Below are positions 7,303 through 23,273 of a DNA stretch of 64,000 nucleotides, in pieces. Positions within the stretch are counted from its first letter, which is position 1. Each line of letters begins with the position of its first letter. The position numbers and the translations under genes are program-made. The notes beneath the pieces were generated by a model. It was not told the DNA's origin and ran no database searches. It was given only the letters and a program-made list of their open reading frames with translations. This stretch comes from Synergistaceae bacterium (GTDB lineage: Bacteria; Synergistota; Synergistia; Synergistales; Synergistaceae): positions 1-64,000 of the forward strand of contig JAUNJZ010000010.1 in assembly GCA_030533085.1 (NCBI GenBank), given 5' to 3'.

Positions 7303-8380
7303 ATGAAATTCATATACGAAAGAGACGCCGCGGAAAAACGGGGCGTCTGTAAGCGCATAGCAGAGGCGGTCTCTGCCGGCGGTACGCTCGGCGTCCCTGC
7401 GGAGAAGGCTGCTTATGAGCGAAGTTATGAGCGAAGTTGTGAGCGAAGTATCAGGTACTTAAATCCCCCAAACTGCCCACAGCGAACTATAAAGCCATTA
7501 AAGCCGTTTTTGAAATGGGCCGGAGGCAAGGGGCAGCTTCTTGCCGAGCTTCAGAAATACTATCCCTTCAAAGACGGGAAAATCACAAGATACGCCGAGC
7601 CCTTCGTAGGAGGAGGCGCGGTGCTCTTTGATATTCTCAGTAGGTACGATTTAAAAGCCGTATACATCAGCGATATTAACGCCGAGCTCATCAACAGCTA
7701 TCGCGTCATCAGGGACGATATTGACGAGCTGATTCCGCTGCTTGCCGCTATGCAGAACGAATTTGTCCCGATGGATACGGAGCGCCGCAAAGCCTATTAT
7801 CTGGCAAGGCGCGACCGCTTCAACGAATTGAAAGCTGGCGGCGGCGCAGGTACCAATACGGAAAAAGCGGCGCTTATGATTTTCCTCAACAAGACTTGTT
7901 TCAACGGTCTCTACCGAGTGAACAAAAAGGGACTCTTCAATGTTCCGATGGGTTCCTACAAGACTCCGCTTATCTGCGATGAAGCAAACCTTCGCGCCGT
8001 ATCGGAGACATTACGGAATGTGACCGTCGTCTGCGGCGACTACAGACTGTCGGCCGGCTTCATTGACGAAGAGACCTTCGTATACTTAGACCCCTCCGTA
8101 CCGTCCAATTACAGCCACCGCAAGCTTTACCGCGTATACGGAAAATCTGTTTAATGATAAGGAACAGCTTGAGCTTGCGCGATTTGTTGAAAGTATGCAC
8201 CGAAAAGGAGCCAAGATCGTAGTAAGCAACTCAGATCCTAAAAACTCCAACGCAGAAGATGACTTCTTCGATAACATCTATTCGGCGCACAAGATCAAAA
8301 GAGTCGAAGCGACTCGTATGATCAACCGCGACGGCAAGGCAAGAGGTAAAATTAAGGAATTACTCATATCGAATTTCTGA
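7303..8380 (+). pseudogene. Dam-type DNA adenine methylase, frameshifted in DPPY
   Basis: The core matches class alpha N6-adenine methylases: PFLKWAGGKGQLL and EPFVGGGAVLFDIL for S-adenosylmethionine binding, then target-recognition text, then YLDP at the catalytic motif. After DP the frame is lost. Shifting by one base at the CCCC run at 8091-8094 restores the full catalytic motif and a normal C-terminus through NLFNDKEQLELARFVESMHRKG to the stop at 8380. The first open frame ends at 8155. The roughly 65-residue N-terminal extension before KPFLKWAGG is unusual and contains a threefold 12-bp repeat. No cognate nuclease is visible, so this looks like an orphan or element methylase. Confidence 0.85.
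7413..7448 (+). repeat. three tandem 12-bp repeats in the methylase gene
   Basis: Three copies of TTATGAGCGAAG, the last with one change, encode YERSYERSCERS in the non-conserved N-terminal extension of the methylase reading frame. It is a simple-sequence tract that could vary in copy number without breaking frame. Confidence 0.75.
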
Positions 8381-10172: not shown

Positions 10173-12686
10173 TTAGAACTCCTGCGCTTCTTTATACAGC
10201 TTTCTCGACCGTCTCGTCCATTCTTCTTCAGTGATGAAGCGGTCTATAAATTTGTCTTTATTCAGCCAGTCGAAGGGGATGAGGCCGTCCGCTTCCTTAA
10301 AGCTGCGTCCCTTGAAATAAGAACCGTCCTTTAAATCTTTCCATTTGTCTTTTCTGAACCACATGTACCTGTATTCCCCTGATTCAAAAGCGGCTTCGCT
10401 TTTCTCTAAAAAGTCAGAGCTTATTGCTAAAAAGGGATTCTGCTTTCCCTCCTTCGTCATCCAGTAAAAACGAGGGTCAAGCACCGTTAGCGTTCCCCAA
10501 TCCTCAGTCGAACGCTCCAAACGCCCCATCGCCTGAATAAGATTGAAAAGCATCAGGTTCATCCTGTGTTCGCTTTCGCTCCTTATCTTTCCCGTCTTTT
10601 CAAGCAGCTCAAGCCTCCGCTTCTCAGAAGCTCCGTTGTTGTCATAAGGAAGCTTGTCCATTATTACCCAGGTCAGCTTTTCCCTTACCGCGTCAAAGCC
10701 CTCCCTGAAAGAATTGGAGGCGACCAGTACCGGCGACTGGCTGTTTAAGTAATTCCCGACAAGCTTGACCCTCGGCATCTCTCCCTGTACGAAGAGCTCC
10801 CTGCCGGGCATCGGATCAAGCAGCGGACGCAGCGTCGCCGCTACCGACTTCATCCGCTCTATCGAAGTGCAAAGTATCAGCACCCCGCCGTTATTATGCT
10901 TCACATATCCAGGCACGTACTTACGGCAGAAGTTGTTCAGATTGGTTATCCTGTCCTCGCTCATCTGCTTCTCACTGGGACCGCAGCCGGGCAGCTTCAG
11001 CTCTTCATTAGCCTTCGGGACCCAAAGCTGAACATGCCTGTGCTCAAAGGGAGAGGGCACTTCGACCACCGGCGTATTCTCAGGCAAACCGGCTTCCGCC
11101 GTAAACACCGACGGCAAGGAATCGATAAGCAAGGTGCCGCTTATAAAGCCCGAATACTCAGCCTCCGGTATATATTTCTCAATATCGGAAGAAAGCGAGT
11201 TTTCTTCCGAATACTTTAAAATAGCCAACCCTTCCGAATCCACCGTTATATACGAAGGCGGTTCCGCTATTTCTTTCTTCTTTATTTGTTCTTTGACATT
11301 CTCTTTGATACGTTCCAGCAGCGCTCCGGTCTCGGCGAACTTATCGTAAAGGCGCTTGTTTGCCGGCAGCGCGTCGCGCACTACCTCTTCCGGTAAAGCG
11401 GAAAGCTCTTTGCTTAAAAATTCAGAATCGCTTTTGAGCGTTTCACAAAGCGAAGCCGCTTCCTCGATCTTCCAACACTTTCCCTCAGTTACCTCCTGAA
11501 GCAGTTCAAGCATCTTTTCCCAATTCTTAAATATAAGGCTCTTTCTCGGAAAAAGCTCCTTTACAGCCTTTTTATACGCGGCTCCCGGGAACAAAGGCGC
11601 GGTCAGCGTTTTGTATACCTCGGCCGTCTCAAGCCGGAATTCGCTTTCCTCGGCTGTAAAGTAACCCATCAAGTGATGAGCCTCGTCAAAGAAGTAGTTG
11701 TTTGCCGATAAAAGCGCTGCCTTTTTGCCTGAAGCCTTCTCGTCTTTTGACTCAGAAAGCTCGCTTTCTATTTCATTTACTATCTCATTTGCTATCTCAT
11801 CTGAATCAGTAACTTCGCTTTCCGGCTCTTTTTCAAGCTCGGCTCTCTTTAACGCCTGAAGCTTGCTGGTTACAACGCTGTGGTTGCTGATGATCAGAGC
11901 CGATTTCTGAAAACAGCTGGCGTAATAGGGACAGGGGCGCTCCTCCGAATGACGGGCGAATGCGCAGAACTCCGAATCGCAGTTCTCCTCCGAAGCGTTT
12001 ATAAAGGGCAGAAGATCTCCTTCTCCCTCATCCGACAGCTCGGCAGCCCTGTCTATATCAAGGCTTATTCTTTTGCTTCCGGCTCCCGCTATGACGTCAA
12101 GCTTTGCCGTTGAAAAGACCAGCGTGCGGTTCTCGCGCAGCGAGTGGATGATAAGATCGCGGCCGCCGGAAGTCCACTGGCGGAACTTCTTCAACTGATT
12201 GGGGCAGATGAAATTGGCTCTGCCCTTGACCGTATGGCAGTTCCAGTCGTCAAAGCTTCCCGGAGGAAGCCCGACGTCGGCCAACAGCTTCTTAAATGCC
12301 GGAATATCCTTCGTGATAAGCTGGTTCTGTAGTATCTTCGTCTGAGTTGAGATGACGGTGCGCTTGCGGTACAGCCACCACGACACAAAGGCCAGTATCA
12401 GCAGAACATAGGTCTTGCCGGTGCCGACCGGGGCCTGTCCTATTTGGTATCCGCAGCCCTTTAACTCAGCTCCTGTTTCAATACCCATAGCGGCGTCAAG
12501 CTCTATTCTTTGACGTCTGGCGTAATGCCGCTCCATCTCTTCGGCCATGGATGCAAGCAGTGTGCGCTGGCCGGGCCTGCGCTCTATCTTTAGCTTGTCG
12601 TAAAGCCAAAGACAGTTCTCAAGAAATCCGCCTTTATATAGTTTGCTGCCTTTTGGCTTTTTAGGTCTTTGCGCTTTTGCCGCCAT
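10173..12686 (-). CDS. DinG/XPD-like iron-sulfur superfamily 2 helicase
   Basis: Walker A APVGTGKT is at residues 85-92, DEAH at 334-337, and motif VI QAMGRLERS at 718-726. Between motifs I and II lie Cys161 in the VKGRANFIC context and Cys241, Cys252 and Cys258 in the PCPYYASC region. This is the four-cysteine [4Fe-4S] pattern of XPD/DinG helicases, which unwind DNA 5' to 3'. At 837 residues it is longer than chromosomal DinG, with an acidic insert (about 283-320) and an extra charged C-terminus. It lies downstream of the ankyrin array on the same strand. Element-borne DinG-like proteins occur on plasmids and with type IV CRISPR loci; no cas gene is present here. Confidence 0.85.
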   Translation of the reverse strand: MAAKAQRPKKPKGSKLYKGGFLENCLWLYDKLKIERRPGQRTLLASMAEEMERHYARRQRIELDAAMGIETGAELKGCGYQIGQAPVGTGKTYVLLILAFVSWWLYRKRTVISTQTKILQNQLITKDIPAFKKLLADVGLPPGSFDDWNCHTVKGRANFICPNQLKKFRQWTSGGRDLIIHSLRENRTLVFSTAKLDVIAGAGSKRISLDIDRAAELSDEGEGDLLPFINASEENCDSEFCAFARHSEERPCPYYASCFQKSALIISNHSVVTSKLQALKRAELEKEPESEVTDSDEIANEIVNEIESELSESKDEKASGKKAALLSANNYFFDEAHHLMGYFTAEESEFRLETAEVYKTLTAPLFPGAAYKKAVKELFPRKSLIFKNWEKMLELLQEVTEGKCWKIEEAASLCETLKSDSEFLSKELSALPEEVVRDALPANKRLYDKFAETGALLERIKENVKEQIKKKEIAEPPSYITVDSEGLAILKYSEENSLSSDIEKYIPEAEYSGFISGTLLIDSLPSVFTAEAGLPENTPVVEVPSPFEHRHVQLWVPKANEELKLPGCGPSEKQMSEDRITNLNNFCRKYVPGYVKHNNGGVLILCTSIERMKSVAATLRPLLDPMPGRELFVQGEMPRVKLVGNYLNSQSPVLVASNSFREGFDAVREKLTWVIMDKLPYDNNGASEKRRLELLEKTGKIRSESEHRMNLMLFNLIQAMGRLERSTEDWGTLTVLDPRFYWMTKEGKQNPFLAISSDFLEKSEAAFESGEYRYMWFRKDKWKDLKDGSYFKGRSFKEADGLIPFDWLNKDKFIDRFITEEEWTRRSRKLYKEAQEF

Positions 12687-12848
12687 TTGTCTGTTTGTCC
12701 CTTTGCGTCGATTTCCGTTTCGCTCTATTTGCTACTATAATTATACAAAAGAACGTGAGGTGAAAACAAGCAGAATCGTTACAGCAGAGAGCTTTCGTTA
12801 TAGTTCTTGTTGATAGGCCGGTTCTTCCTGCTCTGAGGCAATACGTGC

Positions 12849-13325
12849 CTAGCTGAGATGCCGCGCAATGTACTCTTCAGCCGATAGGTTCGTCTCGGCA
12901 CGTCGGCCTCTTAAGGATTTTTGAAACGAGGCCTCCAGTAGCTCGACCCGTAACTCAGGCCAATTATTTAATCCCTCCAGCGGCAACCTGCCGTTATTGT
13001 CAGGGAGATTATAATCGCAGTCGGCATCAATAAACGCTTTAGCACAGTCTAGTCTTCCCCAACTGCAAGCCATACGAAACGGGGTGCGACCATCTTTGCC
13101 TTTTATATTTACATTTGCTCCCAAACTTACCAACAGTGCGCAGCCCTTCGGATCGTTGGAAGCTACCCTGCTATGCAGCAGCGTCCAGCCTTCTTCTGCA
13201 CCAAAATCAAGGGAAAATCCGGACTCGACCGCCTTACTGATTATCAAAGCGATCTCAGGGTCGTTTCTTAAAAAAGCAGCTATGATACTGTTGTATATTA
13301 CCTTTTGTTCTTGATCGTCCCGCAT
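12849..13325 (-). CDS. ankyrin-repeat protein with an in-frame stop before its tail
   Basis: This is a single unit of the array: a helical start (MRDDQEQKV), three ankyrin repeats at about residues 40-130 (EGWTLLHSRVASN, DGRTPFRMACSWGRLDCAKAFI and NGRLPLEGL), then an YIARHLS helix. TAG at 12849 ends it there. The same frame continues ARIASEQEEPAYQQEL to a TAA at 12798. That text matches the tail of the paralogue at 15362, so the stop looks premature. A start at 13352 (MDAVPK) is possible, but alignment to the paralogues favours 13325. Confidence 0.7.
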   Translation of the reverse strand: MRDDQEQKVIYNSIIAAFLRNDPEIALIISKAVESGFSLDFGAEEGWTLLHSRVASNDPKGCALLVSLGANVNIKGKDGRTPFRMACSWGRLDCAKAFIDADCDYNLPDNNGRLPLEGLNNWPELRVELLEASFQKSLRGRRAETNLSAEEYIARHLS

Positions 13326-13338
13326 ATTGTTTACTTTG

Positions 13339-13377
13339 GGTACTGCATCCAATTTTTATGTTACCGCATCCTATCTA
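13339..13377 (-). repeat. two copies of the array leader motif
   Basis: GGTACTGCATCCAATTTTT (13339-13357) and GTTACCGCATCCTATCTA (13360-13377) are variants of the motif found upstream of, and between, the other ankyrin genes. On the coding strand the consensus reads TAAATTGGATGMRGTAACC. Confidence 0.7.
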
Positions 13378-13378
13378 T

Positions 13379-13412
13379 AAAAAAGCCCCGTGGAAGATAT
13401 TCTCCACGGGGC
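13379..13412 (-). terminator. terminator after the 180-residue ankyrin gene
   Basis: A 10-bp stem (13385-13394 with 13403-13412) is followed on the minus strand by six T residues. It separates the last ankyrin gene from the rest of the array. Confidence 0.9.
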
Positions 13413-13448
13413 CGGTCGGCGCGAAAACCAACCTCAAATCACTAGCCG

Positions 13449-13991
13449 TTAAAGCTCCATGCCGCAGCTTTCGACTTCCTGTTCCTGTCTGTTGTTGATG
13501 TGGTTTTCTATTTGTTTGATCAGATCCAGCTTGCTTTGATATCTTTTATTGTCCGGGTTTTCAGCCAATTTCTTTGAGGCGGCGGCTTTAACAATATCCA
13601 ACACCGTAACGGTGTTCGTATATTGATACGGAGTGATATTCGGGTTCGCCCCCGCGTCCAACAGCAGCTTGGCTTTTTCTGTATCTTCCTCACGGCAGGC
13701 TTTGTAAAAGGCTGTGCGTCCCCATCTGTCCCGATGGTTGACGTTGGCTCCCAGCTCTATCAAAGTAGACAGGGAATCGGTGGTATTTGGGCGTATTGCT
13801 TCAAGCAGCAGCGTCCGGCCGTTTTTGTCGGCGTAATCGACAGGGAAGCCTTTATCAACGGCCTTTCGGATCATACCGGGGCCGGCGTGCGACTTAAACT
13901 TATTCTCGGGCAGTAGGTATGAGTCAACGACAATAGCCTCTATGAGCTCTTCATATAACAAATCCAGCTTCTTCTTCTTATCTGCGGTCAT
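13449..13991 (-). CDS. ankyrin-repeat protein of the array, 180 residues
   Basis: It has a helical N-terminus with the shared GFPVDYADKNGRTLL block at about residue 48, then ankyrin repeats NHRDRWGRTAFYKACREEDTEK and LLLDAGANPNI. A Lys-rich helical stretch replaces the usual PLDLLE segment. The protein ends EVESCGMEL, a Glu-Leu tail like its neighbours. AGGAGGAGAAAGGAC immediately precedes ATG, a strong ribosome binding site. It has no signal peptide. Ankyrin repeats bind proteins; the partner is unknown. Confidence 0.8.
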   Translation of the reverse strand: MTADKKKKLDLLYEELIEAIVVDSYLLPENKFKSHAGPGMIRKAVDKGFPVDYADKNGRTLLLEAIRPNTTDSLSTLIELGANVNHRDRWGRTAFYKACREEDTEKAKLLLDAGANPNITPYQYTNTVTVLDIVKAAASKKLAENPDNKRYQSKLDLIKQIENHINNRQEQEVESCGMEL

Positions 13992-14101
13992 GTCCTTTCT
14001 CCTCCTGGGCGACTTTGCCTGGTTTGATTTTCCAGACTCGCTTAATTGTTCCGTTATCTTCTCCCTCTCCTCGCCATTGCCTATACGGGGAGATTTTGCG
14101 C

Positions 14102-15184
14102 TTAAATCTCAGGACCAAAATCCTTAGTTTGCTGTTTATCGTTCTTTATGTTTAATAGTTTCCAATCTCCTTCTGAAATAACGCCCTGTTGAAACTGTTT
14201 TTCGAGAACGTCTTTTGGAAGCTCCAGACGTGTTATGAACAGCTCCAGCTCCGCGCGGGCCTCTTTACCGTATTTCGCTTCCAGTATTTCGAGCGGGCCT
14301 TTACCGTCGTCGGCCGTAATGTTTAAGTCCGCTCCGGAGGCGATTAAGATCTTCGCGCAGTCTATGCAGCCGTTCATACAGGCTTGAAATACCGGAGTCT
14401 GGTCGTCTCTATCCCGCTTGTTTATGTCGGCGCCAAGTTTCAGTAAAACGTCACATGTCTTATCGTCTCCGGAATAAGCCGCCTGATGCAACAGCGTTTG
14501 ACCCCAGAATTCACGGCTGTCAGTGAAATCCACCGGAAAACCGGCTTTAATTGCTTTCCGGACAATCTTATGTGCGTCCGGATCATGATCGTCTTCAATG
14601 AATTCCTGAAGCTTCTTATAAACAACTATCGCAAGCTCTTCTTCATCTGCCGACATGCCTTCTTCCTCGTTCATCGCGGTTAAAAGCTCTTTTACATCTT
14701 CTTTATCAAGAGGTTCCGTCATTGCGTCCCACTGCCGGTCCTCTTCTTCATCCTCTTTTAGTTTGTTTATATTTTCATTTTCGATGAGTGTACGAGCTCG
14801 GTCAGTCATTAAGCTCAGCAGCGTTAATTCTAAAATCGCTTCGCAGCACTTCTCTTTTCCAAACAGCAACGCGTGGTATGTCAGCGTGTGACCGTCCTTA
14901 TCCTTATGGTCTAAAGGAAAGCCGGCAGCTGCCGCTTCTTTTATCTGAGAAACGGCTTCTTTCTCACTCTCTCCGACAATAGCCTGACGCAGCTGTTCAA
15001 AAGTAACGTCAACAGGGAGCTTTGGAGATTCCTGCTTGCTTTTATCTTTAAGATTCGCGAAAAAGCTTGTCCCCCGCGCAGCTTGCGGCTGCTCTTTATC
15101 AGCTTTTAACCTGTTGAATAATCTTCCCTTCTGTTGTTTGCGCAGCTTAGCCGCGCGAGACGTTTTTCTTTCCAATTTTTTCAT
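14102..15184 (-). CDS. two-unit ankyrin-repeat protein, 360 residues
   Basis: A strongly basic N-terminus (residues 1-55, rich in Lys and Arg) precedes a first, degraded ankyrin unit (AAAAGFPLDHKDKDGHTLTYHALLFGKEKCCEAIL). After an acidic linker comes a second, intact unit from about residue 200 (KAGFPVDF, QTLLHQAAYSGDDKTCDVLLKLGADINKRD, DQTPVFQACMNGCIDCAKIL, PLEILEAKYGKEARAEL). The C-terminus is TKDFGPEI, the same last five residues as the 451-residue protein at 17887. AAAGGAAAAGGGA precedes ATG. It probably arose by fusion of two array units. Confidence 0.8.
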   Translation of the reverse strand: MKKLERKTSRAAKLRKQQKGRLFNRLKADKEQPQAARGTSFFANLKDKSKQESPKLPVDVTFEQLRQAIVGESEKEAVSQIKEAAAAGFPLDHKDKDGHTLTYHALLFGKEKCCEAILELTLLSLMTDRARTLIENENINKLKEDEEEDRQWDAMTEPLDKEDVKELLTAMNEEEGMSADEEELAIVVYKKLQEFIEDDHDPDAHKIVRKAIKAGFPVDFTDSREFWGQTLLHQAAYSGDDKTCDVLLKLGADINKRDRDDQTPVFQACMNGCIDCAKILIASGADLNITADDGKGPLEILEAKYGKEARAELELFITRLELPKDVLEKQFQQGVISEGDWKLLNIKNDKQQTKDFGPEI

Positions 15185-15198
15185 TCCCTTTTCCTTTG

Positions 15199-15363
15199 TT
15201 TACTGCATCCAATCTAATTATTCTTCTATCCCTTCGCCCTGGATACCGCATCCGATTTTATATTACCTCACACTTTTTGCCCTTATTCTTCTTTATTCTT
15301 CATTCTTTTCGCCCTGGTTGCCGCATCCAATTTATTATCCATAGTTACCTCATCCAATTTATT
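15199..15363 (-). repeat. run of four clear leader motifs between ankyrin genes
   Basis: Copies lie at 15199-15216, 15241-15260, 15316-15337 and 15342-15363, with a decayed one at 15261-15278. On the coding strand each reads about TAAATTGGATGCGGTAACC followed by a purine-rich stretch that resembles the start of an array gene (for example AGGGCGAAAAGAATG). The last copy abuts the stop codon of the gene ending at 15362. They look like remnants of duplicated gene starts. Confidence 0.75.
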
Positions 15364-15844
15364 ACAGCTCCTGCTGATAGGCCGGCTCATCTTCTGCTGA
15401 AACGCCGCGGAGCTGGCTATAGCGTTCTTTGATGTACTCCATTAGTTCATCGCGCACAGCTTTACCTTTTCTTAGTTCTAAAAGGTCCATGGGGTTAGGC
15501 AGTTCGGTACTGTTATCCGGGGTAGTCCATCCGGCGCCGGCATCTATCAAAATCTTCGCGCAGTCAATATGACCCTGAGAGCAAGCTCTGCTAAACGAGT
15601 TGTGTCCCCATTTATCACGGAGGTTAATATCAGCACCCAATTCTATAAGCGTCCGGCAGCATTCGGGTTTATTCCAATTTGCGGCGCCGTGCAGCAGCGT
15701 AAGGCCGTATTTATCTGCGTAATCAATAGGGAAGCCGTCAGCGATAGCCGCTTTTATTCGATTTACAGCTTCTGTTCCCGTTTCGCGATAAATAGTAGTT
15801 ATCAGCACATTGAACATTTCTTGCTGTTCTTCTTTGTCCAGCAT
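15362..15844 (-). CDS. ankyrin-repeat protein of the array, 160 residues
   Basis: This is the cleanest single unit. A helical start (LDKEEQQEMFNVL) is followed by AAIADGFPIDYADKYGLTLL, ankyrin repeats HGAANWNKPECCRTLIEL and NSFSRACSQGHIDCAKIL, the segment NPMDLLELRKGKAVRDEL, a YIKERY helix and the tail EDEPAYQQEL. There is no signal peptide and no membrane segment. The ribosome binding site is GAGTGAGAG close to ATG 15844. It can serve as the reference for its damaged neighbours. Confidence 0.82.
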   Translation of the reverse strand: MLDKEEQQEMFNVLITTIYRETGTEAVNRIKAAIADGFPIDYADKYGLTLLHGAANWNKPECCRTLIELGADINLRDKWGHNSFSRACSQGHIDCAKILIDAGAGWTTPDNSTELPNPMDLLELRKGKAVRDELMEYIKERYSQLRGVSAEDEPAYQQEL

Positions 15845-15890
15845 TATCTCTCACTCTTTTTGACATTATTCCTCTTTCTTTTCCCTATGT

Positions 15891-16080
15891 TTACTGCATC
15901 CAATTTGAATTATCTCTCATTCTCTTTCCCTCGGTTACTTCCCTCATTCTCTTTCTTTCGGTTACCGCATCTAATTTGAATGTTTATTCTTCTCCCCTTT
16001 CCCTTTACTTCTTCTTCTTCTATCTCTTCGCCATGGTTTCATTCTTCATTCTTTTCGTCTTGGTTACTTCATCCGATTTA
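15891..16080 (-). repeat. leader-motif repeats and pyrimidine-rich spacer
   Basis: Leader motifs occur near 15891-15908 and 15959-15979, with a third (GGTTACTTCATCCGATTTA) near 16063-16081, and degenerate copies between. The spacer is strongly C/T-rich on the plus strand. No gene is supported in it. The right-hand copy touches the old tail stop of the next ankyrin gene. Confidence 0.7.
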
Positions 16081-16100
16081 TTAAAGCTCCTGCTGGTAGT

Positions 16101-16574
16101 CTAGCTCTTCCTCTTTTGAAGATTGAGATGCCGGGCGATGTACGCTTCCAGTTCCGCTTTTTCGGTTGTCCAACCACGAAATCCCAGATCCTTCAACGGC
16201 AGCTTGCCATCGTTGCTTGGGATATCCCATCTTGCGCCGGCGTCTATTAAGAGCTTCGCGCAATCGATATTTACTCGCCAACAGGCGTTTAAAAAAGGAG
16301 TCCATCCACAATTATCCTTAAGATTGGGGTCAGCGCCTAGTTCAATAAGCGCCCGACAGCACTCTGGCCTGTTATGCCCGGCCGCCTGATGCAGCAGTGT
16401 CCAGCCGTCTTTATCTATGTAATTTACTGGGAACCCTGCTTCCACCGCTTCACGTATCAGCTTCGCCGCCTTCTTGTCGTTTCTTCCGTTGAGTATTCCT
16501 TTTCCACAGAGAGTAAACGCAAGCCTATAATACATAGTTTTTAATTCTCCTATGTTTCTCTCTTCCTTCGACAT
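16101..16574 (-). CDS. ankyrin-repeat protein of the array, tail frameshifted
   Basis: A single unit: MSKEERNIGELK start, EAGFPVNYIDKDGWTLLHQAAGHNRPECCRALIELGADPNL, CGWTPFLNACWRVNIDCAKLLIDAGA, LPLKDLGF and AYIARHLNLQ. In its own frame it ends KRKS at 16101. A one-step frame change just before the end gives SSKEEELDYQQEL, ending at 16081, which matches the conserved tail of 15362, so an indel has removed the tail. ATG 16574 follows the leader motif GGATGAGGTAACC; an upstream GTG at 16622 is possible. Confidence 0.75.
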   Translation of the reverse strand: MSKEERNIGELKTMYYRLAFTLCGKGILNGRNDKKAAKLIREAVEAGFPVNYIDKDGWTLLHQAAGHNRPECCRALIELGADPNLKDNCGWTPFLNACWRVNIDCAKLLIDAGARWDIPSNDGKLPLKDLGFRGWTTEKAELEAYIARHLNLQKRKS

Positions 16575-16627
16575 GGTTACCTCATCCAATTTATATTGCC
16601 TTGATTGCTTCATCAGATTCACATTCC

Positions 16628-17716
16628 CTATATCTCAGGGGCGTCGTTTAATTCTTCCTGCGCGGAAGCTTTCTGCGCAATATTGAGATGTTCGGCAATA
16701 TACGCCTCCAACTCATCTCTTATACCTTTCCCATGCCTTTCCTCTAATATATCCAGCGGCAGTTCGCCGATTTCGTCAGGGATGTTAGGATCGCCCCCGG
16801 CGTCGATTACTAGCTTGGCACAGGGTATACCACTTAATGAGGAGTCGCAGGCATCGTAAAAGGGAGTCTTTCCCCGGTTATCCTCAACATTGACGTCTGC
16901 TCCAGCGTCAGTCAGGAGTTTGACGTTCTCAAAACACGCGTGGCTACAGGCTTGATGAATAGGGGCTCTCCCCCACCTATTCCGCGCGTTCACGTCGGCT
17001 CCGAGTTCGACAAATACCCGGCAGCACTCCGGTTTATCAAACTCCGCTGCCCAATTCAACAGCGTGTTCCCGTCTCTATCCAAGTGATCTATCGGAAAAC
17101 CTGCGGCAACAGCTTCTCTTATCAGCTGATTGATCTGATCACAATGACTTTCACCCTTCATCATGATGTTGTGTGCGAGCTTGCCGTGTATCATTTTAAA
17201 GTCTTTCTTGGTCATTTTAAGACTTCTGTTTGTAAGCCAATCTGTGGACTTCTTGAATATACCGGGTTTGACAGACTTGACCTGCGTTATGTATTCTTCT
17301 ACCTGAGCGCGGATTTCTTCTCCACCCCGTTGTTGTTCCAGTACATCCAACGGCGAAATACCGTTTTTGTCTGGAGCGTCAGGGTCGGCTCCTGCGTCAA
17401 TCAGAGCTTTGACGCAGTCAAAACCTTCTTTACCGCTCATTCTGTTTAATCTGAAACAGGCGTTAAACATCGCGGTCTTGTTCATTCTGTCCTTGTAATT
17501 GACGTCGGCTCCCAGCTCAATGAGTGCCTGGCAGCACTCAGGGCTGTTATAGCAGACCGCCAGGTGAAGCATTGGCCAGCCTGTAACGCCTTCAGCATGA
17601 TCGACAGGAAAACCGTTAGCTACCGCTTCGCGTATCATGTCAACGGCGTTAGGATCCTTTGAAGCTATTGCTTTTGCAAGCTTCATGTATATTCTTTGAT
17701 TTTTCGTTTTGTTCAT
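16628..17716 (-). CDS. two-unit ankyrin-repeat protein, 362 residues
   Basis: Two complete array units lie head to tail. Unit 1 (about residues 1-150) has AVANGFPVDHAEG, the PECCQALIELGADVNYKD repeat and SPLDVLEQQRGGEEIRAQVEEYI. Unit 2 (about 180-350) has AVAAGFPIDHLDRDGNTLLNWAA, PECCRVFVELGADVNARN and NVEDNRGKTPFYDAC, then PLDILEERHGKGIRDELEAYIAEHL. The tail is EELNDAPEI. TAAGGAGGAATTATAAA precedes ATG. Its stop lies only 53 nt before the next array gene, so these two genes at least are cotranscribed. Internal duplication is obvious. Confidence 0.85.
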   Translation of the reverse strand: MNKTKNQRIYMKLAKAIASKDPNAVDMIREAVANGFPVDHAEGVTGWPMLHLAVCYNSPECCQALIELGADVNYKDRMNKTAMFNACFRLNRMSGKEGFDCVKALIDAGADPDAPDKNGISPLDVLEQQRGGEEIRAQVEEYITQVKSVKPGIFKKSTDWLTNRSLKMTKKDFKMIHGKLAHNIMMKGESHCDQINQLIREAVAAGFPIDHLDRDGNTLLNWAAEFDKPECCRVFVELGADVNARNRWGRAPIHQACSHACFENVKLLTDAGADVNVEDNRGKTPFYDACDSSLSGIPCAKLVIDAGGDPNIPDEIGELPLDILEERHGKGIRDELEAYIAEHLNIAQKASAQEELNDAPEI

Positions 17717-17886: not shown

Positions 17887-19242
17887 TTAGATTTCAGGTC
17901 CGAATTCCTCTTCGTCCTGTTCCACGTCTTCTACCGCGATTTCACGGTTCTCTACGATTTCTCGGTTCTCTACATTTGCTTCTTTGACCTGTTCTATCCG
18001 CTCTTCCTTGACCTCTTCACGGTGCTCTTCGACTATCTCATCAGAGATGTCTATCCCGCGCTGAATATTCAGGTCGGTCACAACGCCGCTTGCGCTTACC
18101 GCGGCTGAACTGACAGAGACGCCTCCGTCCTTCGTCATTCGCGCGGACTCAAAGCGGCAGTCCTTCCCATCGCTTACCGTGCAGGAGGCCTCATAGAAGT
18201 CTGATTCGGGGTCCGCCGTTACCGTCGCGTACAGAACGAAGGGAACCTTTCGTTCTTCCGGAATAGGCTTATCGACCTCGATTTCAACGTCGTTCTTCTC
18301 CAGAGAGGTCTTCAGATTCTCATAGAAATTCTCAAAGACCGGCTTAAGCTCTTTAGGAGCGCTCTTTATGTACTCGTCAATGTGCTTATCCAGATCCTGT
18401 TTGTGGATCAGCGTTATCGACGGATTCATAAAGTTCTCTTTTATATTCTTCGTCTCTTCGTCAAGTATCTTGTCAAAGCGTATCCTATCGACTCCCAGCT
18501 CTTCTTTCTTAATATGGAAGTCCTTCTCCAGCCAGTCGTTTATCGATACCGTGTGATTCACAGGGTCCGCCTTATTAAGACAATACTCGTAAATAGAATT
18601 AAGCTCCTGAAGCATCGCCTTTCTGATAGGCTCCCGCAGGTCCGCGGCAATTATCCTGTCGTTTGCTTTTACCAGCGCGTTTTTGATCCTTCTTATGTCG
18701 ATGCTGCCGTCGCTTACGGTATCCAGAAAGATTGACCTGCTGCGGGCTATATCGACGTTCAGCAGCTCTCTTTCAAGTCCTTTATACGCCTCTTTATCCG
18801 TATTGACCAAAGCCCACAGGCTGCGTCTTGAGGCGTCGAACTCTGAGGGAGAGAAGAGGCCGGCCAGCACGTCTTTGAAGCGCGTTTTGTCTTCCGGCAG
18901 AATATGAGCCTCGGCCGATTTGCGGATATCGTCAACCGCCTTTTCGTCGAGGAAGTAGTCGCCGCCCCTTACTTCATCCTCATGAGCTCTGACGCAGAGG
19001 ATGAAATCTGAGCTGTGAATTTTCCCGTCTTTAATTCCCGGCAGCTGTTTGTTCAGCTCGTCTTTATCGCTCTTGAAAGCTTCAAGATAAGCGGCGGTTC
19101 CGGGGAAATAGATGTTGATACCGCTTTGGAAGACGTTGTCTCCGTATTTATCCATTATGTCTCTGCGGGCCAGCAGCTCATTCGGATAAGGGCCGCTTTT
19201 TTTATGTGAACGCGAAGTAAGCTTTTTATTAAATCCAGGCAT
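17887..19242 (-). CDS. 451-residue hypothetical protein with an ankyrin-array tail
   Basis: I recognise no family. It looks soluble and mainly helical to about residue 330, has a beta-rich patch (VPFVLYATVTADPESDFYEASCTV), then a Glu-rich coiled stretch with repeated ENREIVENREIA, and ends EEEFGPEI. The final FGPEI is identical to that of the ankyrin protein at 14102, yet four of the five codons differ synonymously. The gene lies directly upstream of the array on the same strand. It may be a partner, substrate or fellow cargo of the ankyrin proteins. There is no signal peptide and only a weak ribosome binding site. Confidence 0.65.
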   Translation of the reverse strand: MPGFNKKLTSRSHKKSGPYPNELLARRDIMDKYGDNVFQSGINIYFPGTAAYLEAFKSDKDELNKQLPGIKDGKIHSSDFILCVRAHEDEVRGGDYFLDEKAVDDIRKSAEAHILPEDKTRFKDVLAGLFSPSEFDASRRSLWALVNTDKEAYKGLERELLNVDIARSRSIFLDTVSDGSIDIRRIKNALVKANDRIIAADLREPIRKAMLQELNSIYEYCLNKADPVNHTVSINDWLEKDFHIKKEELGVDRIRFDKILDEETKNIKENFMNPSITLIHKQDLDKHIDEYIKSAPKELKPVFENFYENLKTSLEKNDVEIEVDKPIPEERKVPFVLYATVTADPESDFYEASCTVSDGKDCRFESARMTKDGGVSVSSAAVSASGVVTDLNIQRGIDISDEIVEEHREEVKEERIEQVKEANVENREIVENREIAVEDVEQDEEEFGPEI

Positions 19243-19533
19243 CTTTGATATTCGCTCTGTGTAAAAAGCACAGCGGCTTTTACAGAGCTCCTCCTTTAGT
19301 GATTAGTTTCATTTGTAGTTGCTTTTAGTATATTCGTTCTTTTCCGTACCTTTGGGTTTTTTACCGCAATTGTCAGTTGGAGCTCCCTAAATTCACAAAT
19401 AAATTTTGAGCGTAGAAGACGAAAACGGGGAAGCTTTAGCGCCTCTGAAAGCATTATACAGCCCGCCCGAGGATGAAAACAAGAAGAAAGCGCGGCTAAT
19501 TTTTGAGAAAGCAATCGATTGGAGGAATCCCAT

Positions 19534-22025: not shown

Positions 22026-23273
22026 TTAATTAGGCAGCAGGCCGTCAATTTTCGACAGAGCCTTTTTTAAGTTTTCCGGCGACAGGTGGGCGTATCGCTG
22101 CGTCATCCGTATTGTTTCATGCGTCATAAGACGCTGTACAGTGTAGAGCTCAACTCCCGCCATAACAAGCTGGCTGGCAAAATCGTGCCGGAGGTCGTGC
22201 CAGCGGAAATTCTCGATTTTCGCCTCTTTTAAGAGGCGTTTCCAGTCTCTCATAATTGACGTATATGCTACCGGAGTTCCCTGTTTCCCGCGGCGTATTA
22301 CGTGATCTTCCGGCTTTATCGGCCCCCATGTTTGTTCACTGTATTCGCGCCATACTTCAAGAGCTTTTTTCGCAACGACGGATAGCGGCAGGTCATAGCT
22401 TTTTTTGCTTTTTGCCAGACGCGGCGATATATGTATGGTTTGACCTCCGTCGGGCTGCGACGTAATATCGCCCCAGCACAGCCCTAGTAAAGCGCCGCAC
22501 CGGATACCGGTGTGGTTTGCTATGGTCACGGCAGTTTTCAGGTAATCTTTGCCTTGTTTCTGTTCACGCGCTTCCAAAGCTGCGTACAGCCGTTTACGCT
22601 CTTCAGGCGATAAGTAGCGGGTTTTGACGTCGCTGTCGGTCGTTGCTTGCTTGGCGATTCGGGGGAATTGATAGTCTTCTTCTATTAACCCCTCGCGCTT
22701 CGCCCAATTTATCATGGCTATTAGTCTTGACATATATTCGTTAATAGAGGCTCCTTTAAGGCCCTTTTGTCTATATGTTTCGATGCAGTCCGTTATCATC
22801 TTTTTATCGATATCGTTAAAACGTAACGGGAAAAGCGCGGAGAAGCGCGAAATGCTATGTAATATATGTTTATGGCTTCGGTTTGGAGCCAGACCGTATG
22901 CCGGCTGCAAGTACTCAGCGTATTTATCGCGGATTTCTCGCAGCGTTGGATTTTTGATTTCGATTTCCGGCTCAGCCTTTGGTTTTACGAGCTTTTTAAT
23001 ATCCTTTTCTTCACCGATGGCTTTTTGAGCAAGTAGTTTCATTGCGGTTTCACGCGCCGCTTTGAGCGTTGTCGCTCCATCCGCTATCTTTATTTGCTTT
23101 GTTTTGTTATCAACCGGGGATGTATAGCTAATATACCATGTTCGCCGCCCCGAAGGGCGGATCATCAGATATAGACACGGTATGCCTCCCGCGCCTTTAT
23201 CCCAGTATCTTATGATCTTATCCGCCGGCTGTAATTTGTTGATTTTCGATTGTGTCAGCGCTTCTGCTGCCAT
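22026..23273 (-). CDS. tyrosine recombinase (integrase) with an N-terminal arm-binding domain
   Basis: Residues 1-90 form a DUF4102-like arm-DNA-binding domain (WDKGAGGIPCLYLMIRPSGRRTWYISY). A SAM-like core-binding domain follows (about 105-205), then the catalytic domain. Arg258 (HTGIRCGALLGL), a Lys near 293, His359 and Arg362 (HDLRHDF), His385 and Tyr394 make a full catalytic set, so the enzyme appears intact. AAGGAGG precedes ATG. It sits at the right edge of the accessory block, facing away from the core genes, as expected for the integrase of an island or prophage. Inverted repeats lie upstream. Confidence 0.9.
   Translation of the reverse strand: MAAEALTQSKINKLQPADKIIRYWDKGAGGIPCLYLMIRPSGRRTWYISYTSPVDNKTKQIKIADGATTLKAARETAMKLLAQKAIGEEKDIKKLVKPKAEPEIEIKNPTLREIRDKYAEYLQPAYGLAPNRSHKHILHSISRFSALFPLRFNDIDKKMITDCIETYRQKGLKGASINEYMSRLIAMINWAKREGLIEEDYQFPRIAKQATTDSDVKTRYLSPEERKRLYAALEAREQKQGKDYLKTAVTIANHTGIRCGALLGLCWGDITSQPDGGQTIHISPRLAKSKKSYDLPLSVVAKKALEVWREYSEQTWGPIKPEDHVIRRGKQGTPVAYTSIMRDWKRLLKEAKIENFRWHDLRHDFASQLVMAGVELYTVQRLMTHETIRMTQRYAHLSPENLKKALSKIDGLLPN

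What the first reader, a model, noticed from the sequence alone, without database searches (positions are those of the whole stretch)
17887..19242. Unknown 451-residue protein as the likely partner of the ankyrin array
It sits at the head of the array on the same strand, shares the FGPEI tail with an ankyrin protein, and carries a Glu-rich segment with duplicated ENREI units before the tail. Nothing in it matches a family I know. If the tail is a docking or export tag, this would be the non-ankyrin cargo or effector of the same route.
Basis: inference. Interest (0 to 1): 0.55.

Follow-up and report, generated by a model that had tools for sequence, protein, structure and literature searches.

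The report
Orphan protein sharing ankyrin end tag
An island gene with no known relatives ends in the same short protein tag that all its neighbouring ankyrin-repeat genes encode, which suggests that they plug into one common partner whose nature is still unknown.

Summary
The gene is real: 17887-19242 (-) encodes 451 residues, reads as coding like its neighbours, and has no relative in any collection searched. It lies in a low-GC region with an integrase, in a Synergistota-like genome.

All six ankyrin genes of the array encode a version of the tag (FGPEI, DAPEI, three YQQEL, GMEL). Two do so only beyond a lesion: an in-frame TAG, and a frame change. In the whole 2.63-Mb genome, QQE[IL]-stop occurs three times, all in the array, and [DE][FY]xxE[IL]-stop ends no convincing gene elsewhere. 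Copies of the tag differ only by synonymous changes while neighbouring codons diverge, so it was kept as protein. In an ankyrin model it is disordered.

The best reading is a C-terminal docking tag shared by an orphan protein and an ankyrin family. Export is not supported: no type IV coupling or VirB4-type ATPase was found, and there is no signal peptide or membrane segment. The tag was absent from 73 ankyrin ORFs outside this genome, and 114 other Synergistota genomes have ankyrins without this protein, so it is local to this island. The receptor and the protein's activity remain unknown.

The parts
17887..19242 (-). orphan 451-residue protein (P1), the finding
   Evidence: ORF; coding statistics; no Pfam, PDB, PADLOC or NCBIfam family and only chance-level PHROGs matches
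17890..18057 (-). acidic C-terminal segment of P1, residues 396-451, net charge -17
17938..17973 (-). tandem VENREI VENREI duplication in P1 (residues 424-435)
   Evidence: read from sequence
17890..17904 (-). FGPEI tag of P1
17828..17849 (-). strong hairpin between P1 and the first ankyrin gene, terminator-like
   Evidence: z -3.84; not listed by the terminator scan
16628..17716 (-). ankyrin protein, two units, tail NDAPEI
16101..16622 (-). ankyrin protein ending early by a frame change; the tail EEELDYQQEL lies in another frame, ending at 16081
16081..16101 (-). out-of-frame DYQQEL tag of the 16101 gene
15362..15844 (-). ankyrin protein, one unit, tail PAYQQEL; model pLDDT 89 with disordered tail
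14102..15184 (-). ankyrin protein, tail KDFGPEI
13449..13991 (-). ankyrin protein, tail SCGMEL
12849..13352 (-). ankyrin protein stopped by an in-frame TAG
12798..12848 (-). in-frame continuation after that TAG, ending EEPAYQQEL
10173..12686 (-). DinG/YoaA-like helicase downstream of the array; ends EAQEF, possibly a degenerate tag
22026..23273 (-). tyrosine integrase at the edge of the low-GC region

Best explanation
P1 is a cytosolic, lineage-restricted protein of an integrated element. Its C-terminus is a flexible acidic linker ending in a short docking tag. Each ankyrin protein of the adjacent array is, or was until recently, built the same way: a folded ankyrin module followed by a disordered stretch ending in [F/Y/D/C]-x-x-E-[I/L]-COOH. 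The proposal is that one receptor binds the free C-terminal tag and so recruits P1 and the ankyrin proteins to the same place. The ankyrin modules then supply varied target binding, and P1 a different activity. Shown: the tag is real, confined to this array as far as searched, disordered in an ankyrin model, and conserved as protein. Inferred: that it binds one receptor, that the receptor lies in this cell, and that P1 is functionally tied to the ankyrins. Unknown: the receptor and what P1 does.
For: QQE[IL]-stop occurs 3 times in 2.63 Mb, all 3 in the array. Of 9 sites of [DE][FY]xxE[IL]-stop, 3 are array tails and the other 6 end open frames of 3-62 residues. FGPEI of P1 and of the 14102 gene differ at 4 bases, all synonymous (simulated p about 5e-4). 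Between the 15362 and 12849 genes the last eight residues differ only synonymously (5 of 5 changed codons), against 10 nonsynonymous, 1 stop and 2 synonymous changed codons in the sixteen just upstream (Fisher p 0.003 without the stop). The ankyrin model is confident (pLDDT 89) except the last nine residues. P1 and the ankyrins show no similarity outside the tail. P1 has no membrane segment or signal peptide by hydropathy.
Against: Two of six ankyrin genes have lost the tag to lesions, so it may be dispensable for some members or the array may be decaying. P1 and the array are probably separate transcripts. No receptor candidate was identified. P1 has no homologue, so conservation of its own tag cannot be tested beyond the comparison with the 14102 gene. 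The motif is short and partly defined after the fact.
Confidence: 0.45

Rival explanations
1. The tail is an export signal: P1 and the ankyrin proteins are effectors sent out of the cell by a C-terminal-signal secretion system.
For: Short disordered acidic C-termini and ankyrin modules are typical of effectors of type IV systems (recalled). The tail is shared by unrelated proteins.
Against: No VirD4 or AAA_10/VirB4 match in the own genome; no signal peptide; Glu at position -1 does not fit the C-terminal signals I recall. About 5% of the genome may be missing and other secretion systems were not searched.
Confidence: 0.15
2. The common end is a recombination relic or coincidence: gene 3' ends were shuffled within a repeat-rich array and P1 picked one up, without function.
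For: The array is repeat-rich: 10 copies of an 18-base leader repeat between 13338 and 16592, and paralogues with fused units. P1 sits next to it.
Against: Four synonymous and no nonsynonymous differences between the P1 and 14102 tails; no similarity of the flanking DNA by eye; the same pattern in the QQEL pair. None of the leader repeats lies at P1.
Confidence: 0.15
3. Competition: the ankyrin proteins carry the tag of P1 as a mimic and compete with P1 for its receptor, or bind P1 itself, in the manner of antitoxins.
For: Many ankyrin copies against one P1; different folds with the same end. An ankyrin protein that inhibits enzymes of its own cell is known: Bd3460 of Bdellovibrio (PMC4686830, abstract and section 9 read).
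Against: No toxic domain in P1 by profiles. Bd3460 binds largely by shape, and no shared tail is mentioned in the parts I read.
Confidence: 0.1
4. Polymorphic toxin with an ankyrin poly-immunity array: P1 is the toxin, the ankyrins are immunity proteins.
For: Ankyrin immunity proteins (Imm-ank) in poly-immunity loci are described (PMC3482391, passages). One odd gene heads an array of paralogues.
Against: P1 has no toxin domain, trafficking domain or signal peptide, and its C-terminus, where toxin domains sit in such systems, is a low-complexity acidic tail.
Confidence: 0.07

Closest known systems
Ankyrin-repeat proteins (Pfam PF12796, PF00023)
   Same: the six array neighbours are true ankyrin proteins by profile; one was modelled and matches solved ankyrin structures
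   Different: P1 is not one; the C-terminal tag is absent from 73 ankyrin ORFs outside this genome
PDC-M72A, candidate defence protein with ankyrin repeats (PADLOC)
   Same: the 16628 ankyrin protein matches at E 1.4e-24
   Different: the match covers only positions 244-386 of the 392 of the profile, and P1 matches nothing in PADLOC
Imm-ank poly-immunity loci of polymorphic toxin systems
   Same: ankyrin paralogues beside a non-ankyrin gene
   Different: no toxin or trafficking domain found in P1
Acidic C-terminal docking tips such as that of single-strand DNA-binding protein (recalled)
   Same: acidic disordered linker ending in a hydrophobic residue
   Different: here Glu is next to last and Ile or Leu last; the SSB tip, as I recall it, ends in Pro-Phe

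Membership tests
any known protein family (P1) | profile match above threshold | tested here: not met
   0 families in Pfam, NCBIfam and PADLOC; only E 0.06-0.11 in PHROGs; none in PDB
ankyrin-repeat protein (P1) | ankyrin repeats in sequence | tested here: not met
   phmmer against window ORFs gives nothing below E 2
effector of a type IV secretion system | coupling and VirB4 ATPases in the genome | tested here: not met
   PF02534 and PF12846: 0 matches in G000, about 95% complete
effector of a type IV secretion system | tail-dependent translocation | not testable with these tools
   needs an experiment
polymorphic toxin system | toxin domain and trafficking domain in the candidate toxin | tested here: not met
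   no profile match; no signal or membrane segment by hydropathy
polymorphic toxin system | immunity-type neighbours | tested here: inconclusive
   neighbours are ankyrin proteins, which can but need not be immunity proteins
PDC-M72 candidate defence system | full-length M72A with its partner gene | tested here: not met
   partial match only; no PADLOC match in P1
SSB C-terminal tip | terminal Pro-Phe after acidic residues (recalled) | tested here: not met
   7 of 7 tails end Glu-Ile or Glu-Leu
type IV CRISPR (helicase neighbour) | other type IV cas genes beside the DinG | tested here: not met
   of the 10 proteins scanned, only the helicase matched a type IV model (E 4.5e-52); one E 0.009 Cas8b match is weak. 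Not every island ORF was scanned

The most novel reading that the evidence does not exclude
A mobile island encodes its own C-terminal address system: a tag of about five residues ([FY]-x-x-E-[IL]-COOH) on an acidic flexible arm directs unrelated proteins, a variable set of ankyrin adaptors and one orphan protein, to a single receptor not yet described.
Probability: 0.25. Interest if true: 0.7.

Novelty: new variant of a known kind. Interest (0 to 1): 0.42.

Why it matters
Ankyrin genes are common in this phylum (115 of 185 genomes carry Ank_2), and the two searches for ankyrins with the phylum's names listed no paper whose title or abstract start is about them. A tag shared with a non-ankyrin protein gives a concrete handle, a bait peptide, to find what such an array is connected to.

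Tried and rejected
Relatives of P1: none in phages, plasmids or viral contigs (whole protein and two halves), and only itself in the phylum. The single hit in genome contigs (L012) was read and rejected: the ORF looks like an extracellular solute-binding lipoprotein and shares the stretch GGDYFLDEK (name recalled). The weak phylum hits at E 0.004-0.1 (nine genomes) are not relatives in the two cases read: L013 looks like methionyl-tRNA formyltransferase and L014 like a YbbR-domain protein (names recalled). The other seven were not read. The genome-contig scan uses exact 8-residue patterns, so distant relatives would be missed.

Synteny through neighbours: the helicase has only partial, low-identity DinG-like relatives, and the 19519 protein has none beyond one weak hit. 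No island elsewhere could be compared.

Structure of P1: pLDDT 34.7, discarded; no fold search was made with it.

Third site of the GPEI pattern (C46): of 6 ORFs of at least 80 aa in that locus none ends in the pattern.

Attachment sites: only a 15-base repeat (23714 and 2479), taken as chance, so the element's borders are not defined. Its left limit is also uncertain because the contig begins at window base 1.

Papers: searched for ankyrin immunity, ankyrins in Synergistetes or Synergistota, ankyrin arrays with C-terminal motifs, and FGPEI. Searches found no paper; the others gave listings, of which I read passages of PMC3482391 and the abstract and section 9 of PMC4686830.

Full report
What was checked. 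The ORF at 17887-19242 on the minus strand encodes 451 residues from an ATG. Its codon usage scores 0.30 log units per codon, within the range of the other island genes (0.16-0.33), while its shifted frames and the overlapping opposite-strand ORFs score at or below zero. The Glu-rich end (residues 396-451, 41% acidic, net -17), the doubled VENREI and the FGPEI end are as described.

Setting. The window is the start of a contig of a 2.63-Mb, 76-contig genome whose searched relatives are all of one phylum. Bases 1 to about 24,000 mostly have a GC of 0.44-0.54 (one 1-kb block 0.56), against mostly 0.53-0.61 beyond. A tyrosine integrase lies at 22026-23273, and many genes around P1 are without families. 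I read this as an integrated element; its borders were not found and no tRNA is in the window.

P1 is an orphan. No Pfam, NCBIfam, PADLOC or PDB match and only chance-level PHROGs matches; no tblastn match in phages or plasmids at E 1; nothing in viral contigs with the whole protein or two halves. Of 185 genomes of the phylum, only its own has a clear match. Nine others gave E 0.004-0.1; the two of these that I read look like housekeeping genes. The one hit in genome contigs is a chance match to what looks like a solute-binding protein. Single-sequence AlphaFold gave pLDDT 34.7, which is useless.

The tail is in every ankyrin gene of the array. Intact genes end NDAPEI, PAYQQEL, KDFGPEI and SCGMEL. 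The 12849 gene stops at a TAG, and the frame continues for 16 codons to end EEPAYQQEL. The 16101 gene stops early, and another frame over the same bases ends EEELDYQQEL. P1 ends EEEFGPEI. So seven of seven genes encode a version, five of them in an intact reading frame.

The tail is confined to the array as far as searched. QQE[IL]-stop: 3 sites in the genome, all in the array (backward-read control 4). [DE][FY]xxE[IL]-stop: 9 sites, 3 in the array (control 13); the other 6 end open frames of 3, 9, 20, 29, 34 and 62 residues and do not look like genes, and one of them ends in TGG, which the pattern lets through. None of 44 hand-picked non-array ORFs of the window ends E[IL]. Of 73 distinct ankyrin ORFs outside this genome, drawn from loci fetched up, none ends in E followed by I, L, V, F or M. 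A profile of the array ankyrins finds many ankyrin proteins in the phylum (75 of 185 genomes at E 1e-12, its own included), but among the listed matches outside the own genome the alignments end before the tag, the furthest at position 176 of 181. Other tails such as DAPEI and GMEL were not searched genome-wide.

The tail was kept as protein. The five codons FGPEI of P1 and of the 14102 gene differ at four bases, all silent; random placement of four substitutions gives an all-silent outcome about 5 times in 10,000. For the 15362 and 12849 genes, the last eight residues have five changed codons, all silent, while the sixteen codons before have ten amino-acid changes, one stop and two silent changes (Fisher p 0.003 without the stop). 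This argues against a recent DNA transfer of the end. The comparison covers only two pairs of genes. In the model of the 15362 protein (7-row alignment, pLDDT 89.2) the ankyrin fold is confident and residues 151-159, which hold the tail, are below 50, as expected of an exposed linear motif. The best Foldseek matches are mostly designed ankyrin proteins, so the fold itself says nothing on function.

Mechanism. A short free C-terminus shared by proteins with no other similarity and kept by selection is most simply a docking tag for one receptor. I give this 0.45. Export is less likely: no type IV ATPases, no signal peptide or membrane segment. The genome is about 95% complete and no other secretion system was searched, so export is not excluded. 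An inhibitor or immunity role of the ankyrins has precedents (PMC4686830 abstract and section 9; PMC3482391 passages), but P1 shows no toxin features.

Against the reading. P1 is separated from the array by a strong hairpin and lacks the repeated leader of the ankyrin genes: 10 copies with 3 mismatches or fewer, 0.06 expected, all between 13338 and 16592. Two of six ankyrin genes have lost the tag. The motif was defined after looking. The phylum is full of ankyrin genes without P1 (114 of 115 Ank_2-positive genomes).

Verdict. Observation confirmed and strengthened; the partnership with this particular array is supported; the cargo or effector reading is not.

Noticed in passing
window 13338-16592 (-): Ten copies of a leader repeat near AAATTGGATGCRGTAACC in the gaps and starts of the ankyrin genes (0.06 expected by chance); several contain a two-codon ATG-NNG-TAA.
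   Followed up: partly
window 12849-12851 and about 16101-16130 (-): Two ankyrin genes are cut short just before the tag, one by an in-frame TAG and one by a frame change, while the tag beyond is intact.
   Followed up: partly
window 10173-12686 (-): DinG/YoaA-like helicase that matches the PADLOC type IV CRISPR DinG model at E 4.5e-52 without other type IV cas genes among the proteins scanned; it ends AQEF.
   Followed up: partly
window 19254-19295 (-): A Shine-Dalgarno-like AGGAGG lies about 50 bases before the ATG of P1 with a 13-pair hairpin between them (the whole 81-base stretch folds no better than shuffles, z -0.57).
   Followed up: partly
window 7303-8154 (+): D12-type adenine methyltransferase whose profile match stops at position 184 of 253, so it may be truncated.
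   Followed up: no
phylum search: Large ankyrin sets (often 20-38 Ank_2 matches per genome) in family f3 of the phylum.
   Followed up: no
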